Shown here: positions 1,657 to 23,223 of the stretch, one piece after another | Layout of the letters: each line of letters starts with the position of its first letter | How positions within the stretch are numbered: position 1 is the first letter of the stretch | IMG/VR virus record: IMGVR_UViG_3300021197_000685 | Span: 1-23,543 of that record | Source: a virus | Reading direction: 5' to 3' (one strand) | DNA: 23,543 bases | The notes under the pieces: generated by a model | Database searches by the model: none | Seen by the model: the letters and a program-made list of their open reading frames with translations, nothing else | Told to the model about the DNA's origin: nothing | Position numbers and translations under genes: made by a program

Positions 1657-4600
1657 ATGGCTAATGGAATTACAGGGGTTCTGGACCCACGGGTAAAAGC
1701 AATTGCCGATCAATTAGACGAGGCGGAGATTTTTAAACCCACCGCCCTTACGCCTGAGAGTATTGAAACGCAACGGGCCTTGTTGCGCGGCCTTCCTGGA
1801 ATGGCCGCTACCGATTACCAGAAGCAACTACAAGAATCTAAAGATTTATCTAGATTAAATTTGCTTTTGGGAGTTTCCAAAGCGGGATTTGATTATGCTA
1901 GTGCTCCTCGACAGCGCGGAGAGGGTGAATTCTCGGTAGCTTCAAGGGCGCTCTTTTCTCCTCTTTTGCCGCAAGTATCCAAGTTTGCCACGGATGTAAA
2001 GTCCGCAGAACTTGCCGCAGCAAAAGCCAAGAGGGATGAGGAGAGGGCTCTGACGCAAAGTGCGCTCACCCTGCAACAAACGGAAGCGGCCCGTTCAGAC
2101 AAAGCTCGCGATGCACGACAAAATCTTGCTATTTCGCTTGCAGAAAAGAACTACAAGCCTATAGGGAAGGGTTGGCAGTATAAGGACGACAAGGGTAATT
2201 TCCAATCTTTCTACGGGTATCAAGTTACGAACAAACAAACCAACGACGTAGAAACGTACCGCGTAGACAAAAAGGGGAAGCCGGTACTTATAACGAGCGA
2301 GATAAAAGAAGCGCCCGATAAGACTACAACGTTGAAGCCCATGCTTTCTGAACCTGGTTATGTAATAGATCCTGACGGAAGGCAACAACGGGCAACCCGC
2401 ATCTTTAACCCAAACAACAACTCTATGAAAATTGTTCTTTCAGATAGCGGCGTTGCTATCCGTACTTCTGGAGAAAACCCCCCTTATACGTGGTCCCGCA
2501 CGGACCCAGCAGGGGGTGGCAAGGGGACAATAAAGTCTGTAACGAAAACGGCTCAATTTCTGACGAAAAATCCAAAGGGCAAATTTGAACTAAAGTCCAT
2601 TCCTGTAGAGCGCATTCAGATAGACGATCCTACCACACTTTTGAGGAGGTTTGGTCCGCAGTTGTTTCCTGTTAATAGCGAAATACCACTCACAGCGGAT
2701 GATCCCACAAAGAAAGGTCCAGACGGAAAGCCCCTGAAGATAAATCCTGTAGAAGGAATACATTTTACGTTAAGTCCCTTAGACAATCTAAGCCCTCCAA
2801 CCACGGAAAAATTCTATCTTAGAAAAGATTTAAGTGAGCAAGATTTAAGAGCCGCTCAAAGTAAACTTGGAAAAGTGCAACCCGGAGAATTAGTTAGCAG
2901 ACGGGTGTACCGGAACAAGAATACGCAACAGGTCCGTTTGTCTCAGTATGATGCACAGGGAAAAATAACGGGTTTAACTCCTGACGAAGCAAATAAATTT
3001 CTTACCGTAAAATCCGACCAGGACGACGGCAAGGGAAAGGCTCTTTCAAAGACCCCTGTAGAACTTACTATAGATGGCAAACCCGGACAGTTCTTATTGT
3101 ATGAGTATGGTCCTGGCGACATAGGCTTCTACGATCTTGCAACGAAGAAGCGACTCGACGACAGCAAAGCGAAAGGTGCCTATAAATCAATTCCTGAAGA
3201 CAAGCTTTTCCAAACTCTTGAACCTGTCTTCAATCAGGCGCTTGAAGCTGCCATAGCAAGGCGGCAGGACCTAGATGCGGCCACCTTGGAAGCATTAAAA
3301 AAGCAAACGCTTACTACTGCGGATCTAAAGAGGCTTACAAACCTGAAAGGCGGACAAGGTCTTACTCAAGCTATATCGGACATAGTTTCTACTAGGATTT
3401 CGGATATCTCAAATAGGCCGAAGCCCGCAGCGGCTGTTCCTAGTCCAGCCGTGCTTCCACCTCACCTTACTCAACGTTATCCGCGCATAAAGTCCTTGAT
3501 TTCTCCGAGTGGTGCAACTCGCGAAAACTTTGTTCCTAATGCTATATTTATGCCTTGGAAAAGTGGTGCGGAGGTCACCCCGGATAAAAGAATTATGCTT
3601 GGTACGGGGTCTCACAAAGGTTTCAAATCTGTTACAGAATCAGAGATAGACAGAGCTTCTAGAGACTGGCCGTCGATTAAATCCGACATAAACAACATTA
3701 TGCCAGATCTGGTTCTAGATAATCGGGAAGAAAATGTTCTTGCGTTTACAGGTCTGTGGAAGCATTTGCCTTCCATGGCAAAGAAAGAAAAGGTGGTTGC
3801 GTTTAGTCCGCAGCAATGGCGGACTGCCTATGATAAAGCGGCACAAAACTATGATGCCGCCGCAGGAAACTTTAAAGATCCATCAGAAATAGATTCTGGT
3901 ATGAAAGGGCGCAGCCTGCAACAACAGATAGATTCTAACGCTGACGCTATTCGGGATAATGCCATCATGTTCCGATACTCAGATCAGGGTGGCGCTTTTA
4001 ATCTTACGGGTACTTGGCTTGCTGAACTTAGAGGCAGTGGTTTAGGCGAACTATACGAAACAGTTGTTTTGGCTGGTGAAGAAGTTGCCATGCCGACAGC
4101 CAAGTGGGAAAAGTTTCTAAAGCCGGATAGCCAATTAACACCAAACGAAAGAGGAGAAAAAAACAAAGCTATAGAAATTTTTAACAAATTTCAGGCCGAG
4201 GGCGCTCCAAAAATTAGTGCGAATGAGTTTGAACGTGCCGCTGAATATCTTGCGGCATTGGCAAGGTATAGAATTCGTGCTTTTGATATGATACCGGATG
4301 CCCGCCCTTCGGATTTAGATATTAAAATGTTCTTACAAGCCTTTGTCGGAGACAGGGATTCAAAGACCGTTATCTTTCAACGGCTTTCTGAATTGCAAAA
4401 TAAACACGCCAACGCAGCTAGTCGTTTAGTCAACAACAACCTGAACAAAGCGGCTTTTTCTGCCGACACTATTGTCGATTTGGAACATACCGCCCGTGCG
4501 CTGGAACGTGCGGCTGTACGCGATGTAGATATGGGGCAGGGTTCCCGTGCAAAACAGCAGGCCGAAAATTATCGTCGTGCGGCGGGAAAATATAGACTAG

Positions 4601-4881
4601 CTGCAAGAAAGATTGCGGGAAAAGTTGTTCCAGGGGTGCGGAAAGGGGCCGTATCTCCTCTTTCAAGGACCGTTGATGAAGAAACCACGGCTAATCTTTA
4701 TAATAGGCTTGAGTCTGCTGCTTTGCAGGCTTTTCCTAACATGTCCTCTAAAGATGCTATTCAAGAGTTCTTGAAAGAAGGTCTAAACCTCATGGAGTTC
4801 AGAGGATCGTTTGAGCGAGGTCAAACTCCAAGTGCAGTGCAGGCAGTTAAAGAATCCGATGGAAGATATACAATTAAATAG
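1657..4881 (+). CDS. Large internal virion-type protein (1074 aa)
   Basis: Starts MANGITGVLDPRVKAIADQL, with AGGAG a few bases upstream. The N-terminal 160 residues look helical, with a coiled-coil-like Ala/Lys/Glu segment around residues 110-160. A Lys/Gly/Asp/Pro-rich middle (about 165-560) resembles repeated beta-rich segments, and the C-terminal third is again helical and charged. No signal peptide, membrane segment or catalytic motif is recognised. The length, the neighbour of 1497 aa and the endolysin that follows resemble the internal-core or ejection-protein blocks of podoviruses. This is an inference from size and position only; a tail protein is the alternative. Confidence 0.75.
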   Translation: MANGITGVLDPRVKAIADQLDEAEIFKPTALTPESIETQRALLRGLPGMAATDYQKQLQESKDLSRLNLLLGVSKAGFDYASAPRQRGEGEFSVASRALFSPLLPQVSKFATDVKSAELAAAKAKRDEERALTQSALTLQQTEAARSDKARDARQNLAISLAEKNYKPIGKGWQYKDDKGNFQSFYGYQVTNKQTNDVETYRVDKKGKPVLITSEIKEAPDKTTTLKPMLSEPGYVIDPDGRQQRATRIFNPNNNSMKIVLSDSGVAIRTSGENPPYTWSRTDPAGGGKGTIKSVTKTAQFLTKNPKGKFELKSIPVERIQIDDPTTLLRRFGPQLFPVNSEIPLTADDPTKKGPDGKPLKINPVEGIHFTLSPLDNLSPPTTEKFYLRKDLSEQDLRAAQSKLGKVQPGELVSRRVYRNKNTQQVRLSQYDAQGKITGLTPDEANKFLTVKSDQDDGKGKALSKTPVELTIDGKPGQFLLYEYGPGDIGFYDLATKKRLDDSKAKGAYKSIPEDKLFQTLEPVFNQALEAAIARRQDLDAATLEALKKQTLTTADLKRLTNLKGGQGLTQAISDIVSTRISDISNRPKPAAAVPSPAVLPPHLTQRYPRIKSLISPSGATRENFVPNAIFMPWKSGAEVTPDKRIMLGTGSHKGFKSVTESEIDRASRDWPSIKSDINNIMPDLVLDNREENVLAFTGLWKHLPSMAKKEKVVAFSPQQWRTAYDKAAQNYDAAAGNFKDPSEIDSGMKGRSLQQQIDSNADAIRDNAIMFRYSDQGGAFNLTGTWLAELRGSGLGELYETVVLAGEEVAMPTAKWEKFLKPDSQLTPNERGEKNKAIEIFNKFQAEGAPKISANEFERAAEYLAALARYRIRAFDMIPDARPSDLDIKMFLQAFVGDRDSKTVIFQRLSELQNKHANAASRLVNNNLNKAAFSADTIVDLEHTARALERAAVRDVDMGQGSRAKQQAENYRRAAGKYRLAARKIAGKVVPGVRKGAVSPLSRTVDEETTANLYNRLESAALQAFPNMSSKDAIQEFLKEGLNLMEFRGSFERGQTPSAVQAVKESDGRYTIK

Positions 4882-4893
4882 TAGGACGCCGTA

Positions 4894-7800
4894 ATGCCCA
4901 CACTTCTCGAAACTCAAGTTCAAAGCGTCTTAAATGACGGGCGTTCCAGTGACCATAACATGTTGCGCTCTGACCGGACTTTTGCAGAAATCCTTCGGGA
5001 CCCTAAAACAGGGGATGAAAACAAAAGAGATGTTGTAGACGCTTTTGTGCGGACATTTAAGAGAGATTTAGCCCCTAATACAGAGGGACAGGTCCTTGAA
5101 GGAACTGGTGATGCACAACCCTTTAGTGGAGCCCCTCCGGAAGCTCCTGCTCTAGGACCGTTACAGGCCGGGGAGTATTATGAACCCGGCGGAACGTTGG
5201 CCTATGATCCAGAGTTGGAGGCTACCCAAAGTATTCCTTTGACCGTGAACCTTGGATCTTTGGCAGGTGGCAAAAAAGTAGACGGAAAATTTCTTCCTGG
5301 CCCTCCGCGTGGAGATACGAAGTCAGTCACGTTTAATCTTCCTCCCGGAATGAGACCCGGGGAAATTCCCGAAGATTACTGGGATAAAATTATCCAATTT
5401 GTAAGAACGGACGAAAATTTATCCAAAGAATTCGCAGCGGCTCAAGAGCTTGAAGGACTAATAAAGACCGGGGCAAAAGCTGCAACGCGAGAGGCCATTT
5501 TGGGCATCCCAGCGTTACTTGATTTACCAAATCTTGCAGCGCGGGGCGCGGACTATGTATTGAGTCCTACAGGAACGAACACCCTGTTCAATGATACTTT
5601 TGGTAATCTGGCAAGATTTATTGATTACGAACCCCTGACAGATGTTGTGGAAAACATTGTAGATCCACGGGGGGAAGCAGAATCCGTTTATCTTGAGGAT
5701 GCTCCCCGTATAGGAATGTCGCTTGGACTTTATACGACGGAATATCCCAACGCTCTCTTCGAGCCCATGGTGGTTGTGGATCCAAACTACGAACTTGCTC
5801 CCGTTCACCGTGCCACGGGAGAACTTCTAGACTCAGTTCTTACCAATATAGGTTTGGATAAAGCCCTAACTCCTCAAGAAATAACTGAAGCACAGAAGAT
5901 AACGGGACTTATCGCAGGAGTAATGGGAGGTTCCCTTTCACAGTCGGGTGCCATAAAGGCAGGCGCTACACTTGTAAGCAAAGGGTTGACCTTTGAAGAT
6001 CTCCAAGAGGCGGGTGCTTTAAACAAAGCTCTGTACAACATTGCAAACACACCCGGGGTTACCTTTATGCAAGGGGGCCAACGTAGGTTCACTATTCCTG
6101 GGACTATGGTTTTTGGAGCAAAAGACCTTGGCGTAGCTGGGGTTTCCGGTACAGCAATGGCCCTTACGCCAGACGAGTGGGGTCCAAAAGGAAAACTACT
6201 GGCGGGTCTGGGGGCTCCTCTTACATTATCTGCAACAAAGAACTTTGTAACTAATGTTACTAGAGGACAGGGTCTCCCAATTATAGGAGGTATGTTAGAA
6301 CCTTTCTCTCCAGAGGGTCAGATACGGTTGGCAAACCGATATTTAGAGGCTACCCCAGGAGTTCGTGGTAACGAAGCTTTGATTGTTAGTTTGCTGGAGA
6401 ACGCGGAGAATTTTCCCACCAGACCGGGGCAAAGCGCACTTCTTACGACGCCCGCTTACTTCGATTCCGTTTCTAATTCTCTTATGAAGGCGGAACAAGA
6501 ATGGACGGCACTTAGTGGCAGAGGTGTTCCGGATGACCAGATAATCGCGCAACTCTCACAGAACCCAGAATTTGGTCGTTACTTCAATGAGATTCCTATA
6601 TTTCCGGAAACGCCTACTTTAGAAACGTTGTCACAAGCGAGGGTGGCTACCAAATCAATTTCAGATGGTCTCTTAGGAACCATGTCATGGTTAGCTAGTG
6701 GAAGTCCTATAAAAAACGAGGTCTTGAGATCCGCTTCTGAACGATTTGATAAAGCTGAAGAGGTGTTCAAAAACCAAGCTTCTCGATTTGCCGGGGACCC
6801 TGAGAAGGCCGCAGGTTTCGTTGAAGATAGTTTGGTTGCCTTGGATGATCTTGTTACGACGGCCTTATCTGATCACGCTGCCGACGCGGCTTTGTATAAC
6901 CGCCTTGCAGAGCTTGTTGATGACTCTGCGCTTCTTGCCGAAGCTAGGATAGGAGCCGCAGAAAGAGCTATTGAAGGTGTTCAAAATGCTCATAAGGAAG
7001 CTCGACAGATAGAAAGAGCCGTGTGGAGGAACGCGGGTGGCGATACGATATCTATCGATCCTTCCGACATGGCGCTTATAGGAGACAAGGCTGCGGATAT
7101 TATTTTATCCACGCCCGCCGCTCAACGTAATCAAGTACCTCCAATCTTGTTTCAACTGGCAGGGCGCACCCGTTTACTTTCTGACGATGCTTTAGCTGCC
7201 ATGGCGAAAGGTTCCGGAGCCGCTGACGATGTTCCACGTCAAATTGTAACCGCGAGAGCTAAAGTTGCACAACTTCAAGCGGAGTACGACAGTTTACCGT
7301 CCCTTGCAGCAGATCGTGTGGGAGAGAGGCTTGCAAAAAGATTAGAAAGGCAACTGGAAGGGGAAAAATCAAGATTAAAATCTTTTGAAGATCAACTGCT
7401 TCCCTCTAGAACCACAACAGATGAAGCAATCGAGACCTCTCAAGTCGGAATATTAGACTCTGTAGACACTTTAGATCAAGTTTTTGCAGCCCGTGGCGCT
7501 TTAGTAGATGCTGCTGCCCGGTCTCGCGCAAGAACGGGGGGAGCCAACGCCGCTCGTCTTGCTGGTGACATGCAAGCTTACATTATTGACGATTGGTTGC
7601 AGAACCCTGAGTTGTTTGCGGCGAGTGGGGCAATGTCTGACGATGTATTAGCTGCATATAACTTAGCAAGAAAGTTTAGTCAGCAACTTAATGACCGCTT
7701 TACACGGGGTTCTGTAGCGGACTTCTTGTCCACAACGTCTCGCAGAGAAGACAAGGCAGATCCGAATCAATTTCTCGCCAAACTTATTAATGACGACACA

Positions 7801-9387
7801 ATGAGACCAGGAAAATTACCCTCTGGAAGCGTAGACGAGTTGGATGCGGCTCTCGTAAAAGCTAGAGCACCTTTCCTTATGAGAGAAGACAACGTATGGA
7901 GAGTCGATCCAGACGCACCTCTCACTCCCAACATTGAAAACCTTACGTGGCAACAGATCAGCAGTGGAGAGGTTCCACTTTCTAGCGAACTTCTGCGCGA
8001 AGAACTTTTAAACCGTCTTGCTCTTGTAGCGGTGGATCGTCGTACAGGGGATGTTAATACGAAAAGCGTAAACAAGTTTGTAGATAGTTTGGCGGTCCCG
8101 ATTAACAAAGTTGAAGAGAGCTTTCCAGGCTTTCGTTCGGAGCTTCTTGAGTTATCAGAAAATGCCGAAAAACTGGCGGTTAGGAAGAAAGCTTTAGAAA
8201 AACCAACCAAGAAAGCTTTGGACAAAGCTTTACAATCGGGAGACATGGATGATTTATCTGGAGCTTTATCTGGAGCAAAACTTGTTAGAGAAGTTCAGGG
8301 AGATCGAACTGTAGCGAGCGTCTTTCTTGACAATGATCCGAATCAGGTTGCCGCTGCTCTTCTTGGAAAGCCGCAACAATTTGCGTCTGATGTAACTCCT
8401 ATTCTGCAAATTTTAAAGAATGATGAATCTGGTGCAGCTTTAGCAGGCTTCAAGAGAGCTTTGTGGAACGAGATGAATTCATTCACGATGGATAGTCCCG
8501 GAAGGGTAGGCCGCAAACCTTCTGAAGTTACTATGGATCCTAAAGCCTTGCAGACGCTGATGCGAGATCAAGAAACCACGCTCCGAAAAGTTTTCGATGA
8601 TGTAGTTCCTGTGGGATACAGACCCGACGAGAGTGCCACGACGACTTTTGACATGCTTCGTATGTATGTCGATGAAATGGTCAATACAATGGCAGAGATA
8701 GAGGGTCGCGTTTCAGGGGTGAAGGCCGCAGATCCAAGTCCTCCGTTGAGGGCTAGAGAGTTCATCCGAAATCTTGGTCGCATTGCAGGGGTGAAGTTAG
8801 CCTCACTAACGGGAGGTCCTGCACTTGTCATGGCAGGAACGGGTGGTCGGATTGCCAATGAACTTTGGAAGTCGGGGGGTCAAGAAGCTATCTTGCGAGT
8901 TGTTTCGGAAGCTTTGACTGATCCGAATTTTGCTAGAGACATGCTGGTTAACCGCGCTACACTCAATTCTAAAGGACGTTTTGTCTTTGACAAAAGGCTT
9001 ACTCAAAAAATCCGTCCACACCTTTACATTCAGTCCCCAGGAGTACCCACGCAAGTAATTCGTGAGACCATTGAAGACGTTGACAGGGAAGATCAGATTC
9101 GTAGGGAAGGGGGACGAGAAGTAATAACCCGTGACCCTAACGAGAATATTTATAGGCGGCAACGAATTGGGGATCAGTCTTCATTGAAGATGCCCACTCC
9201 TAACCCAGCGTCTGCTTTGAATAATGTTAATATCGCCGCGCCAATATCTCCGCCGCAACAACCCGCCGCCGCGTCGCAAGCGTCGCCTCAAACCTTGGCT
9301 AGACTTGAACAGGTGGGACTACCGCTCTTCGCGAATAAAGGCGGCATAATGTCGGTGCGGGCCAAGCCCAGGCAGATGGTCGGATGA
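4894..9387 (+). CDS. Giant internal virion-type protein (1497 aa)
   Basis: The largest gene of the window, starting MPTLLETQVQSVLNDG after a weak AGGAC. Residues about 330-460 contain several Gly/Ala-rich hydrophobic stretches (for example ITGLIAGVMGG) and another is near 1310 (PALVMAGTGGRIA), of the kind seen in phage ejection proteins that cross membranes. Long helical, charged, coiled-coil-like segments fill about 590-1260. The C-terminus is Pro/Ala/Gln-rich and ends in a basic tag, LFANKGGIMSVRAKPRQMVG. Its stop overlaps the endolysin start by 4 bases. No lysozyme or transglycosylase motif could be seen by eye. A DNA-ejection or internal-core function is inferred. Confidence 0.75.
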   Translation: MPTLLETQVQSVLNDGRSSDHNMLRSDRTFAEILRDPKTGDENKRDVVDAFVRTFKRDLAPNTEGQVLEGTGDAQPFSGAPPEAPALGPLQAGEYYEPGGTLAYDPELEATQSIPLTVNLGSLAGGKKVDGKFLPGPPRGDTKSVTFNLPPGMRPGEIPEDYWDKIIQFVRTDENLSKEFAAAQELEGLIKTGAKAATREAILGIPALLDLPNLAARGADYVLSPTGTNTLFNDTFGNLARFIDYEPLTDVVENIVDPRGEAESVYLEDAPRIGMSLGLYTTEYPNALFEPMVVVDPNYELAPVHRATGELLDSVLTNIGLDKALTPQEITEAQKITGLIAGVMGGSLSQSGAIKAGATLVSKGLTFEDLQEAGALNKALYNIANTPGVTFMQGGQRRFTIPGTMVFGAKDLGVAGVSGTAMALTPDEWGPKGKLLAGLGAPLTLSATKNFVTNVTRGQGLPIIGGMLEPFSPEGQIRLANRYLEATPGVRGNEALIVSLLENAENFPTRPGQSALLTTPAYFDSVSNSLMKAEQEWTALSGRGVPDDQIIAQLSQNPEFGRYFNEIPIFPETPTLETLSQARVATKSISDGLLGTMSWLASGSPIKNEVLRSASERFDKAEEVFKNQASRFAGDPEKAAGFVEDSLVALDDLVTTALSDHAADAALYNRLAELVDDSALLAEARIGAAERAIEGVQNAHKEARQIERAVWRNAGGDTISIDPSDMALIGDKAADIILSTPAAQRNQVPPILFQLAGRTRLLSDDALAAMAKGSGAADDVPRQIVTARAKVAQLQAEYDSLPSLAADRVGERLAKRLERQLEGEKSRLKSFEDQLLPSRTTTDEAIETSQVGILDSVDTLDQVFAARGALVDAAARSRARTGGANAARLAGDMQAYIIDDWLQNPELFAASGAMSDDVLAAYNLARKFSQQLNDRFTRGSVADFLSTTSRREDKADPNQFLAKLINDDTMRPGKLPSGSVDELDAALVKARAPFLMREDNVWRVDPDAPLTPNIENLTWQQISSGEVPLSSELLREELLNRLALVAVDRRTGDVNTKSVNKFVDSLAVPINKVEESFPGFRSELLELSENAEKLAVRKKALEKPTKKALDKALQSGDMDDLSGALSGAKLVREVQGDRTVASVFLDNDPNQVAAALLGKPQQFASDVTPILQILKNDESGAALAGFKRALWNEMNSFTMDSPGRVGRKPSEVTMDPKALQTLMRDQETTLRKVFDDVVPVGYRPDESATTTFDMLRMYVDEMVNTMAEIEGRVSGVKAADPSPPLRAREFIRNLGRIAGVKLASLTGGPALVMAGTGGRIANELWKSGGQEAILRVVSEALTDPNFARDMLVNRATLNSKGRFVFDKRLTQKIRPHLYIQSPGVPTQVIRETIEDVDREDQIRREGGREVITRDPNENIYRRQRIGDQSSLKMPTPNPASALNNVNIAAPISPPQQPAAASQASPQTLARLEQVGLPLFANKGGIMSVRAKPRQMVG

Positions 9388-9833
9388 AGCTATCTGATCA
9401 CTTCTCTCTAAGTGAGCTAACAAAGTCCAGTACGGCGGAGCGCCAGGGCATTGCCAATGACCCGTCCGAGGCTGAGATAGAAAACCTCATCCTTGTCTGC
9501 GGCAACATACTGGAGCCCGTCCGTAACCATTACGGCATACCGTTCATACCTAACAGCGGGTTTCGGTGCCTGGAGCTAAACCGCGCTATTGGATCTTCAG
9601 ACAAGTCCCAGCATACCATGGGCAAGGCCGTAGACTTTGAAGTGCCTGGAATCTCCAACAAAGACGTAGCGTTGTGGGTTCAAGAGAACTGCGACTACGA
9701 CCAGCTTATTCTGGAGTTCTACAAGGAGGGTCAACCCTCCAGTGGCTGGGTGCATTGCAGCTACGATGTAGATAAGGAATTAAGACGGACGGCTCGCGTC
9801 TTCGACGGCAGTAGTTGGACAGACCTAGCTTAA
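9384..9833 (+). CDS. Peptidase M15-type endolysin (D-Ala-D-Ala carboxypeptidase/endopeptidase fold)
   Basis: 149 residues. The zinc-peptidase signature is clear: SGFRCLELNRAIG (58-70), then SQHTMGKAVDFEV (75-87) with the metal ligands His77 and Asp84, then YDQLILEF (105-112) with a conserved Glu111, and WVHCSY (122-127) with the third ligand, His124. This is the Peptidase_M15_3 pattern found in many phage lysins, which cut peptide cross-links of peptidoglycan. There is no signal peptide, so release would need a holin or an injection role. The start overlaps the preceding virion gene (ATGA), so it may be co-translated with it and act as a virion or lysis enzyme. The last 9 bases overlap the end of the convergent helicase gene. 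Confidence 0.92.
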   Translation: MKLSDHFSLSELTKSSTAERQGIANDPSEAEIENLILVCGNILEPVRNHYGIPFIPNSGFRCLELNRAIGSSDKSQHTMGKAVDFEVPGISNKDVALWVQENCDYDQLILEFYKEGQPSSGWVHCSYDVDKELRRTARVFDGSSWTDLA

Positions 9834-11267
9834 CCAGTTCCGAGCGTCCTCTCCCATTATCTGGTCCGCAATTTTAATCTTACCCCGCAGGGCGTTGACG
9901 ATCTTCTCGTCAATCGTGCTTGGGGAGATCATGTCTATATATGTGACTTTGTTAGTCTGGCCTATCCGGTGTGCGCGGTCCTCTGACTGAAGGCGAAGCT
10001 CCAGATCATAGCTATTAGAGTAGTATACGACGGTGTTTGCTGCGGTAAGCGTCAGGCCGAAACCTCCTGTGCGAGGATGCCCCACGATGAAACGTAACTC
10101 TGATTGTCGATCCTGGAAGGATTCCACGATCTGTTGACGCTCAGAATCAGGGGTTTCACCGTGGAGCGATGAGACCGATGGTACGCTAAATCGGTCTCGC
10201 AGGGCCTCAGTAATCGAGCGAATGTCCCGGGTCCATGTCGCCCATATGATCGCCTTACCCTGTATCTCATCGCAAAGATCCAACAGGCTATCCAAACGGT
10301 TGGACTTTACCTGATGGATCGTGCCGTCGTCGTCTGTCAGGTGGCCGCAGCATATCTGTTGCAACCTCATAATCTGTGTCAAAACGTTTTGCGTCGTGGA
10401 CAACTCACCACTGTCCAGTTGTGCTAGTGCCAGATGCTTCATCTGGTTGTATGCCGAAGTCTGTTCTTTTGTAAGCTCGACCTCACGTTTCATGTAGACC
10501 TTGTCGGGCAGGTCCAGGCAGTCTTCCTTACGAACGCGGTATGAGTGCTCTTGCAGTTTCTCGGTCAACTCCTCCAGCTTTCGGAAGCCGACAATCTGGT
10601 TGAACGAATGAGCGCCCATGGTCCGTCGCTTCACAACGGCGTAACGGCCCTGGAATGCAAAGTAACTTTTGAAACCAAGGATCCTGGGGTCCAGGAATTC
10701 CATCTGGCTGTACAAGTCCATGGGACTGCGCGTGACAGGGGAGCCGGTGAGAATCCTACGCATGACGCACTTCTGTCCTATGCGACACAGGGTCTTAGTC
10801 CGTTGGGCTTTTCTATTCTTAATGGTTGTCGATTCGTCAACCGTCATAAACACTTTGAACCGTTCTGCAAAGAACTCGGCAATCTCGGAGCCCTTCTTTG
10901 TACTGAAGGCCTCGACGTTCATGAGCAAAAACTTGAGGGTAGCGGGGTCTCGCTGCGACAGATCGTTAAGTTCTTTCTTCTTGGCCTTTGTCAGGTTAGG
11001 CTTCCAGATGACTACTTCTCTTTGTATGCGCTCCGGAAGATGCGTTTCAATCTCTCTGGCAAGGTTGGCTACCACGGCCTTGGGTGCCACCATGAGTGCA
11101 AAGTCTATACGACCTTCTTCAAAGTTGTACGCCGTTGTATCCAGGTCTACCTTTGATTTGCCCGTCCCCATGTCCATAAGCAGCGCATAGTTCGTCTTCT
11201 CGGCGCTCGCGTCGAAGGCTTCCTTCTGGTGCGCGTAGGGCTGGGTCTTAAAGTTAAATTCGGGCAT
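9825..11267 (-). CDS. SNF2-type superfamily 2 helicase / DNA translocase
   Basis: 480 residues from ATG at 11265-11267 (MPEFNFKTQPYAHQ). The longer reading frame would add 32 hydrophobic residues that run through the promoter region, so I reject it. Motifs in order: a Q-like PYAHQKEA (10-17), Walker A MGTGKS (33-38), motif II DEST (from 144; a variant of DEAH), motif III LTGSPVTRSPMDLYSQ, a long helical insert with a C-C pair (QICCGHL), then GGFGLTLTAAN and SEDRAHRIGQ (428-437), the SNF2 motifs V/VI. Such proteins move along duplex DNA using ATP; in phages they are found in replication or recombination modules. It is the only minus-strand gene in the window, with its own promoter divergent from the replication operon. 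Confidence 0.93.
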   Translation of the reverse strand: MPEFNFKTQPYAHQKEAFDASAEKTNYALLMDMGTGKSKVDLDTTAYNFEEGRIDFALMVAPKAVVANLAREIETHLPERIQREVVIWKPNLTKAKKKELNDLSQRDPATLKFLLMNVEAFSTKKGSEIAEFFAERFKVFMTVDESTTIKNRKAQRTKTLCRIGQKCVMRRILTGSPVTRSPMDLYSQMEFLDPRILGFKSYFAFQGRYAVVKRRTMGAHSFNQIVGFRKLEELTEKLQEHSYRVRKEDCLDLPDKVYMKREVELTKEQTSAYNQMKHLALAQLDSGELSTTQNVLTQIMRLQQICCGHLTDDDGTIHQVKSNRLDSLLDLCDEIQGKAIIWATWTRDIRSITEALRDRFSVPSVSSLHGETPDSERQQIVESFQDRQSELRFIVGHPRTGGFGLTLTAANTVVYYSNSYDLELRLQSEDRAHRIGQTNKVTYIDMISPSTIDEKIVNALRGKIKIADQIMGEDARNWLS

Positions 11268-11280
11268 ACCAAGATTTCTC

Positions 11281-11309
11281 TTGCAATGTCTAATAAATAC
11301 CCATATAAA
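11281..11309 (+). promoter_or_regulatory. Probable sigma70-type promoter of the replication operon
   Basis: TTGCAA (11281-11286), a 17-base spacer, then TATAAA (11304-11309), about 50 bases before the start at 11362, which has AAGGAG 5 bases upstream. The -10 box overlaps the -10 box of the opposing promoter. Seen by eye; the match is 4/6 and 5/6 to consensus. Confidence 0.6.
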
Positions 11310-11330
11310 CAAAATCGCTGGTTTAGTCAA
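11302..11330 (-). promoter_or_regulatory. Probable sigma70-type promoter of the SNF2 helicase gene
   Basis: Read on the minus strand: TTGACT (11330-11325), a 17-base spacer, then TATATG (11307-11302), followed by GGTATT. The -10 boxes of this and the plus-strand promoter share four positions, so RNA polymerase cannot open both at once. Confidence 0.55.
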
Positions 11331-11361
11331 CCATCGAATAACGAACAAATAAGGAGTTATC

Positions 11362-11937
11362 ATGAGCGACTTAATTTCCGAAATGGCCTCTGACGGGGTC
11401 GATCAATCCGACAACATTGACAAGCTTAACGACGGCCAACTCGACGGCGTGTCCGGGCTTGCCAATCGCGCAGCAGAGCTTGAGCAGTTGTTGGCAAAGC
11501 AAGAGCAGGCGATGAAAGATACCAAGGCCGCTCTGCACAAAATCACCGACGAACAGTTGCCGGAAGCACTGGAAGAAATGGGCCTTCAGAAGTTCACTCT
11601 GACGGATGGTTCCGAAATATCTATAAAGCCGATCTACTCCGCGTCCATTCCCAAGGACCGGCGCGATGAGGCGTTTGAGTGGCTGCGCGACCATGAGTTT
11701 GGTGACTTGGTAAAGAACAACGTCACTGTGACGTTTGGACGCGGGGAAGATTCTGCGGCCAAGGAGTTCATGAACCTATGCGGTTCACAAGGATACGCTC
11801 CGGACCAACTCCAGAAGGTCGAACCAATGACCTTGAAGGCGTGGTTACGGGAGCGTGTAGAAGCGGGTGACGCCGTCCCGCTTGATCTATTCGGCGCATT
11901 CATCTCACAACGAGCAACTATCAAGAGGAGTAAATAA
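11362..11937 (+). CDS. Unknown phage protein, coiled-coil N-terminal half
   Basis: 191 residues, first gene behind the replication-operon promoter, with AAGGAG 5 bases before ATG. Residues 35-70 (AAELEQLLAKQEQAMKDTKA) are typical of a coiled coil. The C-terminal half is mixed alpha/beta, with segments QKFTLTDGSEISIKP and TVTFGRGEDSAAKEF, and ends basic (IKRSK). No known family is recognised with confidence. It lies one base upstream of the ssDNA-binding protein start, which suggests co-expression and a replication-linked role; this is inference only. Confidence 0.8.
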   Translation: MSDLISEMASDGVDQSDNIDKLNDGQLDGVSGLANRAAELEQLLAKQEQAMKDTKAALHKITDEQLPEALEEMGLQKFTLTDGSEISIKPIYSASIPKDRRDEAFEWLRDHEFGDLVKNNVTVTFGRGEDSAAKEFMNLCGSQGYAPDQLQKVEPMTLKAWLRERVEAGDAVPLDLFGAFISQRATIKRSK

Positions 11938-12757: not shown

Positions 12758-14299
12758 ATGACAAAGAACGTAGATAGATTCGCACGGCTGTTCCGTGGCT
12801 TGAACAAGGCGTATGGCGCGGTGGACTTAACCACCAAGGACGCCAACGGCAAGCAAAAGGGCAATTACAAGATTGTCCGCGAACCACGGACCAAGGCCAC
12901 GTTTACATCTCACCTGAAGGGTGAGGTCAGCATAGGCGTTGTTCCGATTAACGAGGACAACGTCTGCATCTGGGGGGCCATCGACATTGATCAATACCCC
13001 CTGGATCACGCTCAAATAATCAGAAACATTCTGAAACATAAGCTCCCGCTGGTGGTTTGCCGCAGCAAATCCGGTGGGGCGCACCTGTTTCTATTCTTTA
13101 AAGACTTTATCGACGCGGAGAAGGTTCAACTCAAGCTCAAGGAGTTGTCGAGCGAACTAGGCTACGCCGCCAATACGGAGGTGTTTCCAAAGCAGATAAA
13201 GCTCTTGGTTGACCGGGGTGATACCGGGAACTTTTTGAACCTACCGTATTTCAAGGAAGACGGAGGTCTGCGCTATGCCTTTAAAGAGGACGGTAGCGCG
13301 GCCACGTTGGATGAGTTCCTGGACATGGCCGAAACGGCGGCGATTGATGAGGATCAACTCGACGCGCTGTTGAAGAAGGAAGAGGCTGTTGTTGATGAGG
13401 AGATTAAGGACGGCCCGCCGTGCCTACAGGCTTTGATTCGTCAGGGGTTCCCGGAGGGTACGCGCAACAACGGTCTGTTCAACATTGGCGTATATCTCCG
13501 TAAGTCCAGTCCCGACGACTGGGAGAAGAAGATTCTGGAGTACAATCAGAAGGTCTTCGATCCGCCGCTTGATCTTAAAGAGGTCAACATCGTAGCCGAT
13601 CAGGTGAAGAAGAAGGACTACCAGTACAAGTGCGCGGACCAGCCCATCTGCAACTTCTGTAACAAGGACCTCTGCCGGACACGGCGTCACGGCGTAGGTG
13701 GGGGGACGAACACCCCGACAGTTGCAAATCTTCGTAAGTATGATAGCGAACCTCCACTCTGGTTCCTGGATGTCAACGGATCTCCTGTTGAGCTAGACAC
13801 AGAGGCCTTACAAAAACAGCCGCGCTTTCAAATACTTTGCATGGAGCAGATAAACTTCATGCCGCGCACCATGGCTAAACAAGCTTGGGAGGCTGGCATC
13901 AACAACCTTCTTAGTCATATGATTGAGACCGAGGGTGCGGTCATATCAACGCCAGAAGATACCAGTCTTCGCGGCCAGTTCTATGACTTGCTTGAAGAGT
14001 TTTCGACGCACATGCAGACGGCGGTGGATAAAGAAGAGATATTGCTTCGCCGACCATGGACCGATCCGGAGGACAACCGCACCTACTTTCGGCTCAAGGA
14101 TTTTGAGTCATTTCTCAAGCGCAATAAGTTTTTTGAGTACCGGTCAAACAAGGTGGCTCAAAGACTGCGCGACATGGACGGTAGGGCGGAACAGTTTCGC
14201 ATCAAAGGCCGCACGGTCCGCTGCTGGTCGATACCCGCGTTTGCCAAGATTGAGGAAGAGTTCAGTTCTAAGTTTGAAGATGACGACGTACCATTTTAG
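12758..14299 (+). CDS. Archaeo-eukaryotic-type (AEP) DNA primase
   Basis: 513 residues. AEP catalytic motifs are visible: IWGAIDIDQY (71-80) with metal-binding Asp76 and Asp78; RSKSGGAHLFLFF (102-114) with the sxH-type His109; and LLVDRGDTGNFLNLPYF (149-165) as the third motif region. A four-cysteine cluster (Cys292, 298, 301, 306) suggests a zinc-binding module. The C-terminal region (about 340-500) is helical and may be a PriCT-like or DNA-binding part. The protein ends FEDDDVPF, closely resembling the bacterial SSB tip DDDIPF. It presumably makes primers for the family A polymerase encoded 2.4 kb downstream. No Shine-Dalgarno is free upstream because of the hairpin. A TOTE-type primase-polymerase is the alternative. 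Confidence 0.87.
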   Translation: MTKNVDRFARLFRGLNKAYGAVDLTTKDANGKQKGNYKIVREPRTKATFTSHLKGEVSIGVVPINEDNVCIWGAIDIDQYPLDHAQIIRNILKHKLPLVVCRSKSGGAHLFLFFKDFIDAEKVQLKLKELSSELGYAANTEVFPKQIKLLVDRGDTGNFLNLPYFKEDGGLRYAFKEDGSAATLDEFLDMAETAAIDEDQLDALLKKEEAVVDEEIKDGPPCLQALIRQGFPEGTRNNGLFNIGVYLRKSSPDDWEKKILEYNQKVFDPPLDLKEVNIVADQVKKKDYQYKCADQPICNFCNKDLCRTRRHGVGGGTNTPTVANLRKYDSEPPLWFLDVNGSPVELDTEALQKQPRFQILCMEQINFMPRTMAKQAWEAGINNLLSHMIETEGAVISTPEDTSLRGQFYDLLEEFSTHMQTAVDKEEILLRRPWTDPEDNRTYFRLKDFESFLKRNKFFEYRSNKVAQRLRDMDGRAEQFRIKGRTVRCWSIPAFAKIEEEFSSKFEDDDVPF

Positions 14300-14307
14300 G
14301 AAGAGAC

Positions 14308-14580
14308 ATGAACGTACCGACACACTGGCAAGTTATGCTGAGAGAGATCCGTCAGGACAAAGGATGGAGCATGAGGGAATTGGCCGAAAAGACCGGTCTG
14401 CATGAACGGACCATCTTTGATTACGAGAACGTAAGGAAGCCTAGGGAGATGTCCATATATAAAGTGGAAAGGATTCTTGCCTCGCTGGGCTACGAAATGG
14501 ATTTTTTTATGAAGGACCGGGCCGACCGGGTCATCAAGAAGCGCCATCCCGAGGTTTACGAGGCGACTACCGGTGTTTAG
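14308..14580 (+). CDS. XRE-family helix-turn-helix regulator
   Basis: 90 residues with GGAAGAG just upstream. Residues 8-62 form a Cro/CI-type HTH: LREIRQDKGWSMRELAEKTGLHERTIFDYENVRKPREMSIYKVERILASLGYEM, where SMRELAEKTGLHERTIFDYE covers helices 2-3. The rest is a short basic tail without a dimerisation or peptidase domain. It overlaps the helicase start by 8 bases and sits in the replication operon, not beside an integrase, so it is more likely an operon or early/late switch regulator than a lysogeny repressor. Its operator is unknown; the CCCATA-type intergenic motifs are candidates. Confidence 0.85.
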   Translation: MNVPTHWQVMLREIRQDKGWSMRELAEKTGLHERTIFDYENVRKPREMSIYKVERILASLGYEMDFFMKDRADRVIKKRHPEVYEATTGV

Positions 14581-16094
14581 GTATTTCGGACCTCCCGGCA
14601 CCGGCAAGACAACTACTCTTCTTAATCAGGTAGATGGGTTGCTCGCCAACGGAACGTCACCTACGGAAATTGGCTACTTCGCGTTCACGCGCAAAGCCGC
14701 ACATGAGGCCAGGGATCGCGCCGTTTCGCGGTTTGGTTTGGACCCAGAAAAAGACTTTCTCTACTTCCGCACGCTGCACAGTCTGGCGTTCCTTCTCTTA
14801 GGCATGAACAACGCTGAAATCCTTACAGAGGATAAGCTAAAGAAGTTTGGTAAGGCGGTAGGCGTGGACCTGTCCACGAACAACGAGACCTTGCAAGACG
14901 AAGGCTTCTCCATATTGAGGTCGAACCATCCGATCATGCGCTGTATAGATCTGGCGCGGAACACGCTCCAAGGTCCAGAGTACGCCTACAATTTCTGTGA
15001 CCTACACATGCCGTATTACGAGTACGAACACGTCTATAAGGAATACAACCGGTTCAAGACCGTCAACGGCCTTAAAGATTTCACCGACATGATGGTTGAG
15101 CTTGCGGCGAACGCATCCCTCGTTCCGCACCTGAAGGTTGTTTTTTTAGACGAGGCTCAAGACCTAACGCCTTTGCAGTGGCAGGTGGCTAAGATTTTGA
15201 GCGACAACAGTGACCGCATGTTCGTCGCTGGCGACGACGACCAGGGCATCTACCGCTGGGCCGGGGCCGACATTGACCAGTTCATTAACCTGTCGAGTGG
15301 CTCTGAAGTATTGGAGCAGTCTTACCGCATTCCGAGGTCCGTACAGTCTGGCGGACCGCGTGTCCAAAAGGATTACGCACCGGCAGAAAAAGGTTTGGAA
15401 CCCGCGCAAGGAAGAGGGGTCCGTGTCCCGCATCTATGATCCGCAGAACTTTGACTTTAACGGAGAGGGGTCTTGGCTGGTTATGGCGCAAGCCAATTAC
15501 ATGCTCGACGGCATTGCCGCAGAGATGAAGTCTACCGGCCAGTTCTTTGAAAGGTATAACCAACCGTCGTTAGGCCAGCGGGTGCGGGATGCCATTAGTG
15601 CCTGGAACCACATACAGCAGGAAGCCGGTCACGAAATATCGTTGCGCGATGCACAGAATTTATACCGCCATATATCCAGCGGTGAGGGCAAGCTTCAGCG
15701 CGGTGCGAAGAAGATGCTGGACGGTGCAAATGATCAGGACACGTTCAGCTTGTCCGTTCTCAGGAAGCATTTTGGTCTGCAAGTCCCGGATACAACCTGG
15801 GACGTGGCGCTAGACCGGATACGCGACGAGGACCGAGCATACATCACGGCGCTACTTAACCGAGGCGTTAACATATTTCAGAAGCCTACGATCAAACTGT
15901 CCACGATCCACGGGTCAAAGGGTGGTGAGGCCGACAACGTCCTTCTGTACCTAGACCTGTCGAGCAAGGCGCTACAGGAAATGGAGCGCAACCCGGACGA
16001 CGCTCACCGCGTCCTATATGTCGGAATAACCAGAACGAAGAACAACTTGGTTTTGAAAATGCCGGAGGATCAACAGAGGGGTTGGGCAGTATGA
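14573..16094 (+). pseudogene. UvrD/Rep-like superfamily 1 helicase, split by a frameshift near 15347
   Basis: Starts at GTG 14573 (MFRYFGPPGTGKTT). First part: Walker A GPPGTGKT (6-13), FTRKAA motif Ia, Walker B FLDEAQD (191-197), GDDDQGIYRWAGAD (220-233) and SYRIPRSVQS (250-259). The frame then changes: the continuation LADRVSKR starts at CTG 15348, one position ahead in phase, and runs through TIHGSKGGEADNVL (motif V) and VLYVGITRTKNN (motif VI) to TGA 16092-16094. The family pattern P-x-x-V-x-x-L-A fits if TCT is followed by CTG, i.e. two bases (CT) of a CTCT run are missing. All helicase motifs survive on the two sides, so this may be an assembly or sequencing indel, a recent mutation, or recoding. 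If joined it is about 507 residues. Confidence 0.85.
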
Positions 16095-21073: not shown

Positions 21074-21240
21074 TGTTCACGCTTCTGCGATACAAGGAAC
21101 CGGACCCTGGCGAACACCGTCAGGGCTTCCGGCCCTTGCCCAAAGAGAACCCATACAAGAGCAGTCTCTGTTTGAAGTATGAAGAAGAATCAGAACTGCA
21201 AATCGTCAACGCACCCAAGAGCGTGGACATATCAATTTAA
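21073..21240 (+). CDS. 55-aa unknown protein
   Basis: Begins MFTLLRYKEPDPGEHRQGFR and ends APKSVDISI. It is linked to the previous gene by TGATG and to the next by a 12-base gap that holds GGAG. Mixed charge, one Cys, no membrane segment, no recognised family. Last member of the overlapping small-gene chain before the IS110-like gene. Confidence 0.55.
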   Translation: MFTLLRYKEPDPGEHRQGFRPLPKENPYKSSLCLKYEEESELQIVNAPKSVDISI

Positions 21241-21252
21241 GGAGTCGAACTA

Positions 21253-22053
21253 ATGTTAGAAGAACTTACCTCCGTCGAGCGCCTCAAGCGCGACATCCGC
21301 AACGCCGCTTCTACCCTGTCCGATACAGAGGCGCGGTTCCTCGTTGATTCATACTATCAGATGCAAGATGACCGCATCCGTGCCGCTGGACAGGTTCGTT
21401 CAATGGACAGCGAACCTCACGCCGTTCTGTCCTGGTTGACCGAACAGTCCTCCCTGCTAGAGAACCAAGTCAAAGGTGCTCTCGACGTGTACTCTGCAAA
21501 CCATCCTATAGGTAAGCGCATACGCACCGTCGATGGCGTGGGACCGGTTATCTCTGCGGGCTTCCTGGCGCACATAGACATAACGAGAGCTAACACGGCG
21601 GGCTCCATATGGCGCTACGCCGGTCTGGACCCAACCAGCGAATGGAAGAAAGGGACCAAGCGTCCGTTCAACGCCAGCCTTAAAACGCTTTGCTGGAAGC
21701 TAGGCGAGAGTTTCGTAAAAGTATCCGGCAAAGAGACGGCGGTGTACGGTCATCTCTACAAAGAGCGCAAGGCTACGGAACTGGAGCGCAATGAGAACGG
21801 GGACTTTGCGGATCAGGCCGCTGCAAAGTTAGAGAAGTTTAAGATCGGCAAGACCACCGACGCCTACAAAGCTTACTCCGTGGGCAAGCTACCGCCCGCA
21901 CATATCCATGCCCGTGCAAAACGCTACGCCGTTAAGATGTTCATCAGCCATCTGCACGAAGCATGGTACACGCACCACTACCAACGGCCCGCCCCGGCAC
22001 CTTATGTATTTGCTCACGCTGGGCATGTGCATAAAATGGATGTTCCGTTCTAA
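21253..22053 (+). CDS. IS110-like protein with Transposase_20 (HhH) domain only
   Basis: 266 residues, GGAG 8-9 bases before ATG. Residues 1-85 are helical and lack the DEDD/RuvC nuclease of IS110 transposases. Residues 88-170 match the C-terminal Transposase_20 domain: TVDGVGPVISAGFLAHI (92-108, helix-hairpin-helix), SIWRYAGLDP (118-127), a basic segment WKKGTKRPFNASLKTLCWKLG, and YGHLYKERK. Where typical IS110 proteins have Ser-Gly after the YAGL motif, this one has Lys-Gly (133-134), so the recombinase serine may be missing. The C-terminus ends HKMDVPF, like the SSB tip. No terminal inverted repeats or target duplication are visible, so it looks like a fixed phage gene and not an insertion sequence. 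The repeat array starts 11 bases after its stop. A DNA-binding or junction-binding role is my best guess. Confidence 0.75.
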   Translation: MLEELTSVERLKRDIRNAASTLSDTEARFLVDSYYQMQDDRIRAAGQVRSMDSEPHAVLSWLTEQSSLLENQVKGALDVYSANHPIGKRIRTVDGVGPVISAGFLAHIDITRANTAGSIWRYAGLDPTSEWKKGTKRPFNASLKTLCWKLGESFVKVSGKETAVYGHLYKERKATELERNENGDFADQAAAKLEKFKIGKTTDAYKAYSVGKLPPAHIHARAKRYAVKMFISHLHEAWYTHHYQRPAPAPYVFAHAGHVHKMDVPF

Positions 22054-22064
22054 TCAGTGTATCC

Positions 22065-22568
22065 GAGAGAACCATCGATAATGAATGAATCGAAAGATGG
22101 GAGAGAACCAAAACACGCGAATGAATCAAGTCCCAAGAGAGAACCATATGTTGAGAATGAATCATGAAATAAGAGAGAACCAAAACGCCAAAATGAATCA
22201 TCTGTTGCGAGAGAACCAAAACACGCGAATGAATCACCGCCCGTAAGAGAACCACACGAAGCGAATGAATCATCTGTTGTGAGAGAACCAAAAGCTGAGA
22301 ATGAATCATGTTATCAGACCTGAAGATAGAACCAGACTAGTTGAATGAATCACGTTCTGAGAGAGAACCAAAACACCAGAATGAATCAAAATATAGGAGA
22401 GAACCACTCGTAATGAATGAATCATCTTGTAAGAGAGAACCAAACTCTAAGAATGAATCAGCTAAAAAGAGAGAACCAGATACACTGAATGAATCAGTGC
22501 CTTAGAGAGAACCAGTAGCGAAGAATGAATCATATATCGAGAGAGAACCAGTGGCTATGAATGAACCA
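22065..22568 (+). repeat. Alternating 10-base repeat array with 8-base variable spacers (28 repeats, 18-bp phase)
   Basis: Fourteen copies of A (GAGAGAACCA) alternate strictly with fourteen copies of B (GAATGAATCA). Both fit GARWGAAYCA and differ only at positions 3, 4 and 8. Every spacer is 8 bases except one of 16 (22309-22324). Five of 280 repeat positions deviate: last base of B1, first base of B4 and of A6, third base of A8, eighth base of B14. Spacers are nearly all different; AAACACGC occurs twice and TCTGTTGC/TCTGTTGT once each. A faint extra B-like copy (22047-22056) contains the stop codon of the upstream gene. The plus strand is purine-rich and A and B are not complementary, so no hairpins form. 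Not a CRISPR: repeats and spacers are far too short and there are no cas genes. Function unknown. Confidence 0.97.
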
Positions 22569-22721: not shown

Positions 22722-22727
22722 AGTGAC

Positions 22728-22756
22728 TTGACAACCTCTTCTGTATGGGATAGTTC
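22728..22756 (+). promoter_or_regulatory. Possible promoter with inverted repeat for the right-hand genes
   Basis: TTGACA (22728-22733, 6/6), a 17-base spacer and a poor -10, TAGTTC (22751-22756). An inverted repeat CTGTAT-12-ATACAG (22741-22764) overlaps it and includes a TATGGGA motif. GGGAG lies before the start at 22783. It resembles the 19753 promoter in its TTGACAAC start and TATGGGAT element. Confidence 0.45.
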
Positions 22757-22782
22757 TTATACAGTTAAAGGGAGAAAGTTAC

Positions 22783-23223
22783 ATGAACGCAAAATTTGAT
22801 CCTGCCGCCGCGTGGGATGAATACTTGGATTTATGCGAAGCGCAGCATGAGCCGAGCGATAGTGACTTTTTAGCTAACGCCGGTCTTGATGCATATGGGC
22901 ATCTGACATGGACCGTAGGTAATGATGATTGGATTGCCTGTTTTGATGCAGTCTTATCACCTGACGGAACACGCATTGCGTATCACGCGGTGGTTGATTG
23001 CGAGAGCGGTGGTTTCATCGACACGATTGAAAAGGGTGTTGTGCCTGTCGAAGAGGCAAAGGCGAAGTTACATTATCTGCCGGATAGTTACTTGGACAGT
23101 TGCTACGAGCAATACGCCGACGATCACGAATACCCTATCGATGTTGACGAGTGTCAACAAAGCATTCAACGCTGGAACCGCCATATCGATATTTTAGTGA
23201 ATCAAGGGGAGAAAATCGTTTAA
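22783..23223 (+). CDS. Acidic 146-aa unknown protein
   Basis: Starts MNAKFDPAAAWDEYLDLCEAQ, GGGAG upstream. The protein is strongly acidic (many Asp/Glu, e.g. EQYADDHEYPIDVDECQQS near 109-127) with a beta-rich centre (LTWTVGNDDWIACFDAVLSPDGTRIAYHAVVDCESGGF) and five Cys. No signal peptide or membrane segment. No family is recognised. First gene behind a putative new promoter, directly followed by the zinc-ribbon gene with no spacing. A DNA-mimic or inhibitor role is conceivable for such an acidic phage protein but has no direct support. Confidence 0.75.
   Translation: MNAKFDPAAAWDEYLDLCEAQHEPSDSDFLANAGLDAYGHLTWTVGNDDWIACFDAVLSPDGTRIAYHAVVDCESGGFIDTIEKGVVPVEEAKAKLHYLPDSYLDSCYEQYADDHEYPIDVDECQQSIQRWNRHIDILVNQGEKIV

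What the first reader, a model, noticed from the sequence alone, without database searches (positions are those of the whole stretch)
22065..22568. A strictly phased alternating repeat-spacer array of unknown kind
Twenty-eight 10-base repeats are separated by 8-base variable spacers for 504 bases, with two repeat versions alternating ABAB without one error in order. Repeats are about 98 percent conserved while spacers are nearly all different. This means the repeats and the distance are under selection and the spacer content is either free or deliberately diverse. CRISPR repeats and spacers are much longer; iterons are usually not alternating with fixed hypervariable gaps; coding is excluded by stops in the only coherent plus frame. 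Candidate roles: a multivalent protein-binding array (partition, origin or packaging), a set of short guides processed from a purine-rich transcript, or a recording or landing array for the adjacent IS110-like protein.
Basis: seen in the sequence. Interest (0 to 1): 0.96.

Follow-up and report, generated by a model that had tools for sequence, protein, structure and literature searches.

The report
Phage TIGR-TasA guide-RNA array
The odd striped repeat is the guide-RNA array of a TIGR-Tas system, a CRISPR-like RNA-guided DNA-targeting device described in 2025; here it is a removable add-on, together with its RNA-binding protein TasA, in a virus known only from metagenomes, and what its 14 guides aim at is still unknown.

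Summary
In detail: 14 GAGAGAACCA and 14 GAATGAATCA repeats alternate with 8-nt spacers, with one 16-nt spacer breaking the phase. The feature is not of unknown kind. It is a dual-repeat TIGR array. GAATGAATCA is the edge repeat and GAGAGAACCA the loop repeat, giving fourteen 36-nt tigRNA units with 8-nt spacers A and B. The "IS110-like" gene just upstream is TasA: 266 aa, a solo Nop-like domain without nuclease. By sequence and by predicted fold its best solved matches are TasR and TasH. Hundreds of relatives exist in IMG/VR, most of those examined with an adjacent array of the same build. The edge repeat's two internal pairs covary between arrays, and a 5'-truncated edge repeat overlaps the tasA stop codon. 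A sister virus (polymerase 97.5% identical) lacks exactly tasA plus array, so they form one accessory cassette. No targets were found. Exploratory: near-identical units differ with a 3-nt periodicity, as if guides followed protein-coding targets; the evidence is modest. Verdict: new member of a known kind, natural targets still open.

The parts
21253..22053 (+). tasA: 266-aa solo Nop-domain Tas protein (no HNH or RuvC domain)
   Evidence: phmmer vs PDB: TasR 9mty 5e-12, TasH 21kl 4e-10, IS621 only 0.23; AF2 model pLDDT 87.7, all ten best Foldseek PDB hits are TasH/TasR; Pfam Transposase_20 only
22052..22568 (+). TIGR dual-repeat array, 14 units of edge-spacer A-loop-spacer B
   Evidence: 5' truncated edge repeat AATCA at 22052-22056 overlaps the tasA stop codon
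22065..22074 (+). first loop repeat GAGAGAACCA; further loop repeats start at 22101, 22137, 22173, 22209, 22245, 22281, 22325, 22361, 22397, 22433, 22469, 22505, 22541
22083..22092 (+). first full edge repeat (GAATGAATCG, consensus GAATGAATCA); further edge repeats start at 22119, 22155, 22191, 22227, 22263, 22299, 22343, 22379, 22415, 22451, 22487, 22523, 22559
   Evidence: internal pairs A3-T8 and T4-A7 correspond to G3-C8 and C4-G7 of the commonest edge GAGCGAGCCA
22309..22324 (+). aberrant 16-nt spacer A (TGTTATCAGACCTGAA) of unit 8, before the variant loop GATAGAACCA; the phase break
   Evidence: the likely equivalent unit in L002/L003 has a 9-nt spacer before (G/A)ATAGAACCA
21239..21252 (+). 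ribosome-binding region (AAGGAGTCGAACTA) of the gene that follows the cassette in sister virus L335; now serves tasA
21247..21255 (+). GAACTAATG, left 9-bp imperfect direct repeat at the cassette boundary
   Evidence: read; empty site in L335
22563..22571 (+). GAACCAATG, right 9-bp imperfect direct repeat at the cassette boundary
   Evidence: read; empty site in L335
22569..22721 (+). 50-aa ORF (MSEIIKTPPL...) that directly follows the array; present in L335 (cassette absent), L332 (another ORF in the slot) and L003 (array present)

Best explanation
The array is a TIGR (tandem interspaced guide RNA) array. Shown by sequence comparison: a tasA gene encoding a solo Nop-domain protein is followed, overlapping its stop codon, by 14 units [edge GAATGAATCA - spacer A (8 nt) - loop GAGAGAACCA - spacer B (8 nt)], and gene plus array are gained or lost together as a 1.3-kb cassette. 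Inferred from characterised TIGR-Tas systems: the transcript is cut in the middle of each edge repeat into 36-nt tigRNAs; a TasA dimer holds the edge and loop repeats through box C (..CA) and box D (GA..); spacer A pairs with one strand and spacer B with the other strand of a roughly 16-18 bp DNA target. Having no nuclease, TasA would bind and bend the DNA rather than cut it. The role I think most likely (about 50%) is silencing of rival mobile elements in the same cell by blocking their transcription or replication. The confidence given is for the identification and the guide mechanism, not for the role.
For: Array build identical to experimentally processed SpTIGR of Salicola phage CGphi29 (edge AAGCGAGCCA, loop AAGACAACCA, 8-nt spacers, 36-nt unit; description in PMC12045711). 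Tas homology by sequence and fold. Most TasA relatives in viral contigs carry an adjacent dual-repeat array with period 34-38; 457 of 466 pattern-matched stretches encode relatives. Edge repeats show compensatory pairs at 3-8 and 4-7 (GC|CG, AT|TA, GC|AT, AT|CG, TA|CG). With edges named independently by the truncated first copy, both pairs form in 20 of 26 distinct edge/loop combinations for the edge and 3 of 26 for the loop. Whole edge-to-edge units are what relatives share. Cassette absent as one piece in L335. VIPR, an unrelated phage guide system, silences competing elements (PMC13142463).
Against: No natural target found in 2.1 Mb of TIGR-bearing viral DNA, 0.78 Mb around the relatives' polymerase genes, the virus itself, or, for one prophage guide pair, 200 genomes of the host's family. 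No terminator-like site follows the array, and its last edge repeat is complete rather than 3'-truncated, unlike the typical TIGR array. Transcription, processing, RNA binding and DNA binding were not tested for this locus.
Confidence: 0.93

Rival explanations
1. Same TIGR-TasA system, but its role is regulation of host or own genes, or an RNA-guided aid to recombination, rather than conflict with rival elements.
For: TasA lacks a nuclease; PMC12045711 itself lists gene regulation and help to integrases as possible roles. No targets were found in related viruses.
Against: The cassette is dispensable and sporadic in the lineage, which fits a conflict module better than a core regulator; no self-target in the 23.5-kb contig, but the contig is a fragment and the host is unknown.
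Confidence: 0.3
2. A DNA-level array of protein-binding sites (partition centre, origin iterons or packaging site) in which only repeats and spacing matter.
For: Fixed spacing and conserved repeats with variable gaps.
Against: The array accompanies a Tas protein in most sampled relatives; edge repeats covary as RNA pairs; spacers are inherited as edge-to-edge units; spacer sequence is conserved between viruses, which a spacing-only model does not predict; a close sister virus lacks it altogether.
Confidence: 0.02
3. A landing, recording or transposition array of an IS110-family transposase.
For: Pfam calls the neighbour Transposase_20, PHROGs call it transposase.
Against: No DEDD catalytic domain; the protein is nearly all helical with only the Nop-like half; solved-structure matches are TasR/TasH first and IS621 later; empty-site boundaries are the gene start and array end, so no separate transposon ends are seen.
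Confidence: 0.02
4. A decaying microsatellite or assembly artefact.
For: Tandem Repeats Finder scores it as a 36-nt tandem repeat; some units are duplicates of others.
Against: Repeats 98% conserved while spacers differ; the same build in independent contigs of viruses from many samples, with different repeat sequences.
Confidence: 0.01

Closest known systems
TIGR-TasA systems (Faure et al. 2025, PMC12045711)
   Same: Solo Nop-domain protein beside a dual-repeat array; two alternating 10-nt repeats; 36-nt unit; truncated first edge repeat; carried by tailed viruses.
   Different: 8-nt rather than the usual 9-nt spacers; A/T-rich edge repeat GAATGAATCA (A-T and T-A pairs instead of G-C and C-G); edge box C is TCA while loop box C is CCA; 14 units with one 16-nt spacer; no terminator found after the array.
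SpTIGR-TasH of Salicola phage CGphi29
   Same: 10-nt repeats, 8-nt spacers, 36-nt unit, edge AAGCGAGCCA and loop AAGACAACCA, truncated first edge.
   Different: TasH carries an HNH nuclease and cuts DNA; the window protein has no such domain. SpTIGR ends in a terminator-like hairpin.
IS110/IS621 bridge-RNA recombinases
   Same: Shared Nop-like RNA-binding domain (weaker fold matches).
   Different: No DEDD catalytic domain, no transposon ends, an array of guides instead of one bridge RNA.
VIPR (PMC13142463)
   Same: Phage-encoded repeat RNA guiding a compact protein to DNA, probably against competing elements.
   Different: vrRNAs are GGY/NN tandem repeats bound by a RAMP protein; unrelated repeat and protein.
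CRISPR arrays
   Same: Alternation of conserved repeats and variable spacers.
   Different: One repeat type of 25-36 nt and spacers of similar length in CRISPR; here two alternating 10-nt repeats with 8-nt spacers. No Cas gene was seen among the window proteins scanned.

Membership tests
TIGR-Tas | Array of two distinct alternating 8-12-nt repeats with short variable spacers | tested here: met
   10-nt repeats, 8-nt spacers, 14+14 copies; definition
TIGR-Tas | 36-nt unit (edge, spacer A, loop, spacer B) | tested here: met
   10+8+10+8 = 36, one exception of 44 nt
TIGR-Tas | Adjacent Nop-domain Tas protein | tested here: met
TIGR-Tas | Edge and loop repeats share box D at the start and box C at the end; edge has an extra covarying pair | tested here: met
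   GA...CA in both; pairs 3-8 and 4-7 covary in edges across arrays
[quoted passage not shown]
   AATCA at 22052-22056; an automatic test found it in 72 array records of relatives and not in 73 others
[quoted passage not shown]
   last edge GAATGAACCA is complete and abuts the ATG of the next ORF; no terminator-like site
TIGR-Tas | Processing into 36-nt RNAs bound by the Tas protein | not testable with these tools
   needs small-RNA sequencing of an RNP pull-down
TIGR-Tas | Dual-spacer pairing to opposite strands of a DNA target | tested here: inconclusive
   no target found in the sequences searched
TasA subtype (solo Nop) | No N-terminal HNH or RuvC nuclease domain | tested here: met
   266 aa against 331 (TasR) and 354 (TasH); no nuclease in Pfam; helical N-terminus
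IS110 transposase | DEDD RuvC-like catalytic domain | tested here: not met
CRISPR | Single repeat type of 25-36 nt with spacers of similar size | tested here: not met
   contrast stated
VIPR | GGY/NN tandem repeats with a RAMP protein | tested here: not met
   repeats and protein differ

The most novel reading that the evidence does not exclude
TIGR guide pairs follow protein-coding targets: near-identical units of different or the same arrays differ at positions in one codon phase, as if new guide variants copy synonymous variation of a target gene, with a 2-bp gap between the two 8-nt halves (18-bp target). This would make the unknown targets of TIGR-TasA coding sequences of a co-evolving rival.
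Probability: 0.3. Interest if true: 0.65.

Novelty: new member of a known kind. Interest (0 to 1): 0.42.

Why it matters
Natural targets and biological role of TIGR-Tas, above all of nuclease-free TasA, are stated open questions. This locus adds a clean natural gain/loss pair (window against L335, with another ORF in the same slot in L332), closely related arrays whose units can be compared one by one, and a testable hint that guides track coding DNA. It also shows that Pfam and PHROG labels ('transposase') hide Tas genes in viral metagenomes.

Tried and rejected
Targets: dual-spacer matches (spacer A + reverse complement of spacer B, gaps -2 to 5, 0-2 mismatches) were sought in about 0.9 then 2.1 Mb of TIGR-bearing viral DNA, in 0.78 Mb around the polymerase genes of related viruses (plus the window and L003), and in each array's own contig, against wrong-orientation and loop-first controls: no excess. 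Scanning all of IMG/VR for single 16-mers was judged uninformative, since I estimate tens of chance hits per pattern. A fixed preference of differences for spacer positions 2, 5 and 8 (p = 0.0003) did NOT replicate in held-out pairs (13 observed, 13.5 expected) and is dropped; only the weaker common-phase signal remains. Translation of the array rejected: stops at near-random rate in the plus frames, TGA in most edge repeats of the window in the relevant frame. VIPR was considered and rejected on repeat and protein. Rfam at its gathering scores and PADLOC gave no match.

Full report
OBSERVATION. From 22065 to 22568, GAGAGAACCA and GAATGAATCA alternate 14 times each with 8-nt spacers; 5 of 280 repeat positions deviate. 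Neither repeat occurs exactly elsewhere in the window. The reversed control pattern has no match. One spacer (22309-22324) is 16 nt, so the phasing is not strict. A 5'-truncated repeat, AATCA, with its own 8-nt spacer precedes the first full repeat and overlaps the stop codon TAA (22051-22053) of the upstream gene. All six frames have stops.

IDENTITY. This is the build of a TIGR array as defined by Faure et al. 2025 (PMC12045711): two alternating 8-12-nt repeats (edge, loop), short spacers A and B, a 36-nt unit, and an adjacent Nop-domain Tas protein. The upstream ORF 21253-22053 (266 aa), annotated Transposase_20 by Pfam and transposase by PHROGs, matches solved TasR (9mty, 5e-12) and TasH (21kl, 4e-10) by sequence, IS621 only at 0.23. 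Its AlphaFold2 model from 45 relatives (pLDDT 87.7, pTM 0.85) is nearly all helical. The ten PDB matches below E 0.001 are all TasH or TasR chains, followed by IS621/ISCro4. It lacks the N-terminal nuclease of TasR and TasH, so it is TasA. As a positive yardstick, the experimentally studied Salicola phage CGphi29 array has edge AAGCGAGCCA, loop AAGACAACCA, 8-nt spacers, 36-nt units and a truncated first edge.

RELATIVES. One DNA pattern scan of IMG/VR found the same array family in several contigs; searches with TasA found many more (457 relatives in one scan). Most examined loci carry an adjacent dual-repeat array of period 34-38 (256 array records, partly redundant). Repeat sequences differ between loci but mostly keep GA...CA. 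In edge repeats positions 3-8 and 4-7 form compensatory pairs: GC|CG, AT|TA, GC|AT, AT|CG, TA|CG. That table names the edge by its pairing and is therefore circular. The independent test names the edge by the truncated first copy: both pairs form in the edge of 20 of 26 distinct edge/loop combinations and in the loop of 3 of 26. By this rule GAATGAATCA is the edge repeat of the window and GAGAGAACCA the loop. In many loci, as here, the tasA stop codon lies in or next to the truncated edge. Shared units between relatives are whole edge-to-edge units, for example TCTGTTGC/AAACACGC, CCGCCCGT/CACGAAGC, AAATATAG/CTCGTAAT and TATATCGA/GTGGCTAT in both the window and L003; in the set, near-identical unit pairs (1 to 3 differences) number 24 edge-first against 16 loop-first.

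A REMOVABLE CASSETTE. Sister virus L335 (polymerase 97.5% identical) reads ...TTTAAGGAGTCGAACTA|ATGAGTGAAATC..., while the window has tasA and the whole array (21253-22568) between the same ribosome-binding region and the same ATG. The boundaries are 9-bp imperfect direct repeats GAACTAATG / GAACCAATG. L332 (polymerase 98% identical) carries a different ORF in the same slot, ending ...TTTTGAACCA|ATGAGTG. L003 has array plus the same downstream ORF. No tasA was found in any of the 80 loci fetched around relatives' polymerases; 23 of these loci hold 3.5 kb or more downstream of the polymerase, and only some reach the site. The contig of L017 does carry both an 84%-identical tasA with array and an 85%-identical polymerase. 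So gene and array come and go together and sporadically.

MECHANISM. Shown: anatomy, homology, covariation, co-inheritance. Inferred from PMC12045711: processing into 36-nt tigRNAs, binding by a TasA dimer, pairing of spacer A and spacer B to opposite target strands, DNA bending without cutting. Role: silencing of rival elements is my first choice at about 50%, by analogy with the unrelated phage system VIPR, whose natural targets are competing elements (PMC13142463), and because the cassette is accessory. Host or self regulation is the main rival.

TARGETS. No excess of dual-spacer matches over wrong-orientation or loop-first controls in any set searched.

EXPLORATORY. Near-identical edge-first units (2-3 differences) tend to differ at positions in one codon phase: over 33 pairs the common-phase score is 64 against 52 expected (p about 0.0005 for a 2-bp-gap target, and equally for array coordinates), with no effect in loop-first controls. 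With one independent pair per link, within-half same-phase pairs are 18 of 40 against 10 expected (p = 0.005; control p = 0.48). In held-out pairs the 2-bp-gap score gives p = 0.02, and the earlier preference for positions 2, 5 and 8 vanishes. Including four differences dilutes the signal below significance. The test was devised after seeing the data, so I rate it as a hint only. The geometry (gap 2 or other) is not settled.

HOST AND VIRUS. A tailed virus, by its gene content; nearest named relatives by polymerase are Phage DSL-LC04 (53%, host given as Gammaproteobacteria) and pelagiphages of the HTVC023P kind (about 50%). The host is unknown.

Noticed in passing
L332:11578-11825 (same slot as window 21253-22568): A sister virus carries an unrelated ORF at the exact site of the tasA-array cassette, ending in TTTTGAACCA before the same ATG, perhaps a relic of an array end; the site looks like a cargo slot.
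   Followed up: partly
window 22722-22788 and 22783-23223: A leader with a TTGACA-like box (cttgacaacctcttctgtatggga...gggagaaagttacATGAA) is nearly identical in L332 but is followed there by a different ORF; the window's 146-aa ORF has no match among the fetched relatives. It may be a second cargo slot.
   Followed up: no
window 14573-15439 and 15210-16094: A UvrD-like helicase seems split over two overlapping frames; relatives align to 273 of the first 288 residues, so a frameshift near 15390 (real or sequencing error) is likely.
   Followed up: no
window 1657-4881 and 4894-9387: Two very large ORFs (1074 and 1497 aa): the first without a Pfam match or a relative among the fetched loci, the second without a PHROG match and with only weak partial relatives.
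   Followed up: no
window 12758-14299 and 9825-11363: TOTE-type primase (AEP-TOTE) and an SNF2-like helicase on the opposite strand from the other replication genes.
   Followed up: no
L053, L055, L054, L059: TasA arrays with other unit lengths: 34 nt with a short GAACATCA-type loop, 38 nt with longer edge repeats.
   Followed up: partly
L190:9697-9990: Halomonas sp. NO4 carries tasA with a degenerate array upstream of the gene instead of downstream; an isolate genome that could serve as a laboratory model.
   Followed up: partly
L195:9784-9883: Two units of one array are allelic (GAAATAAC and GAAGTAAC, both with CACTGGTA), as if two variants of one target were covered.
   Followed up: partly
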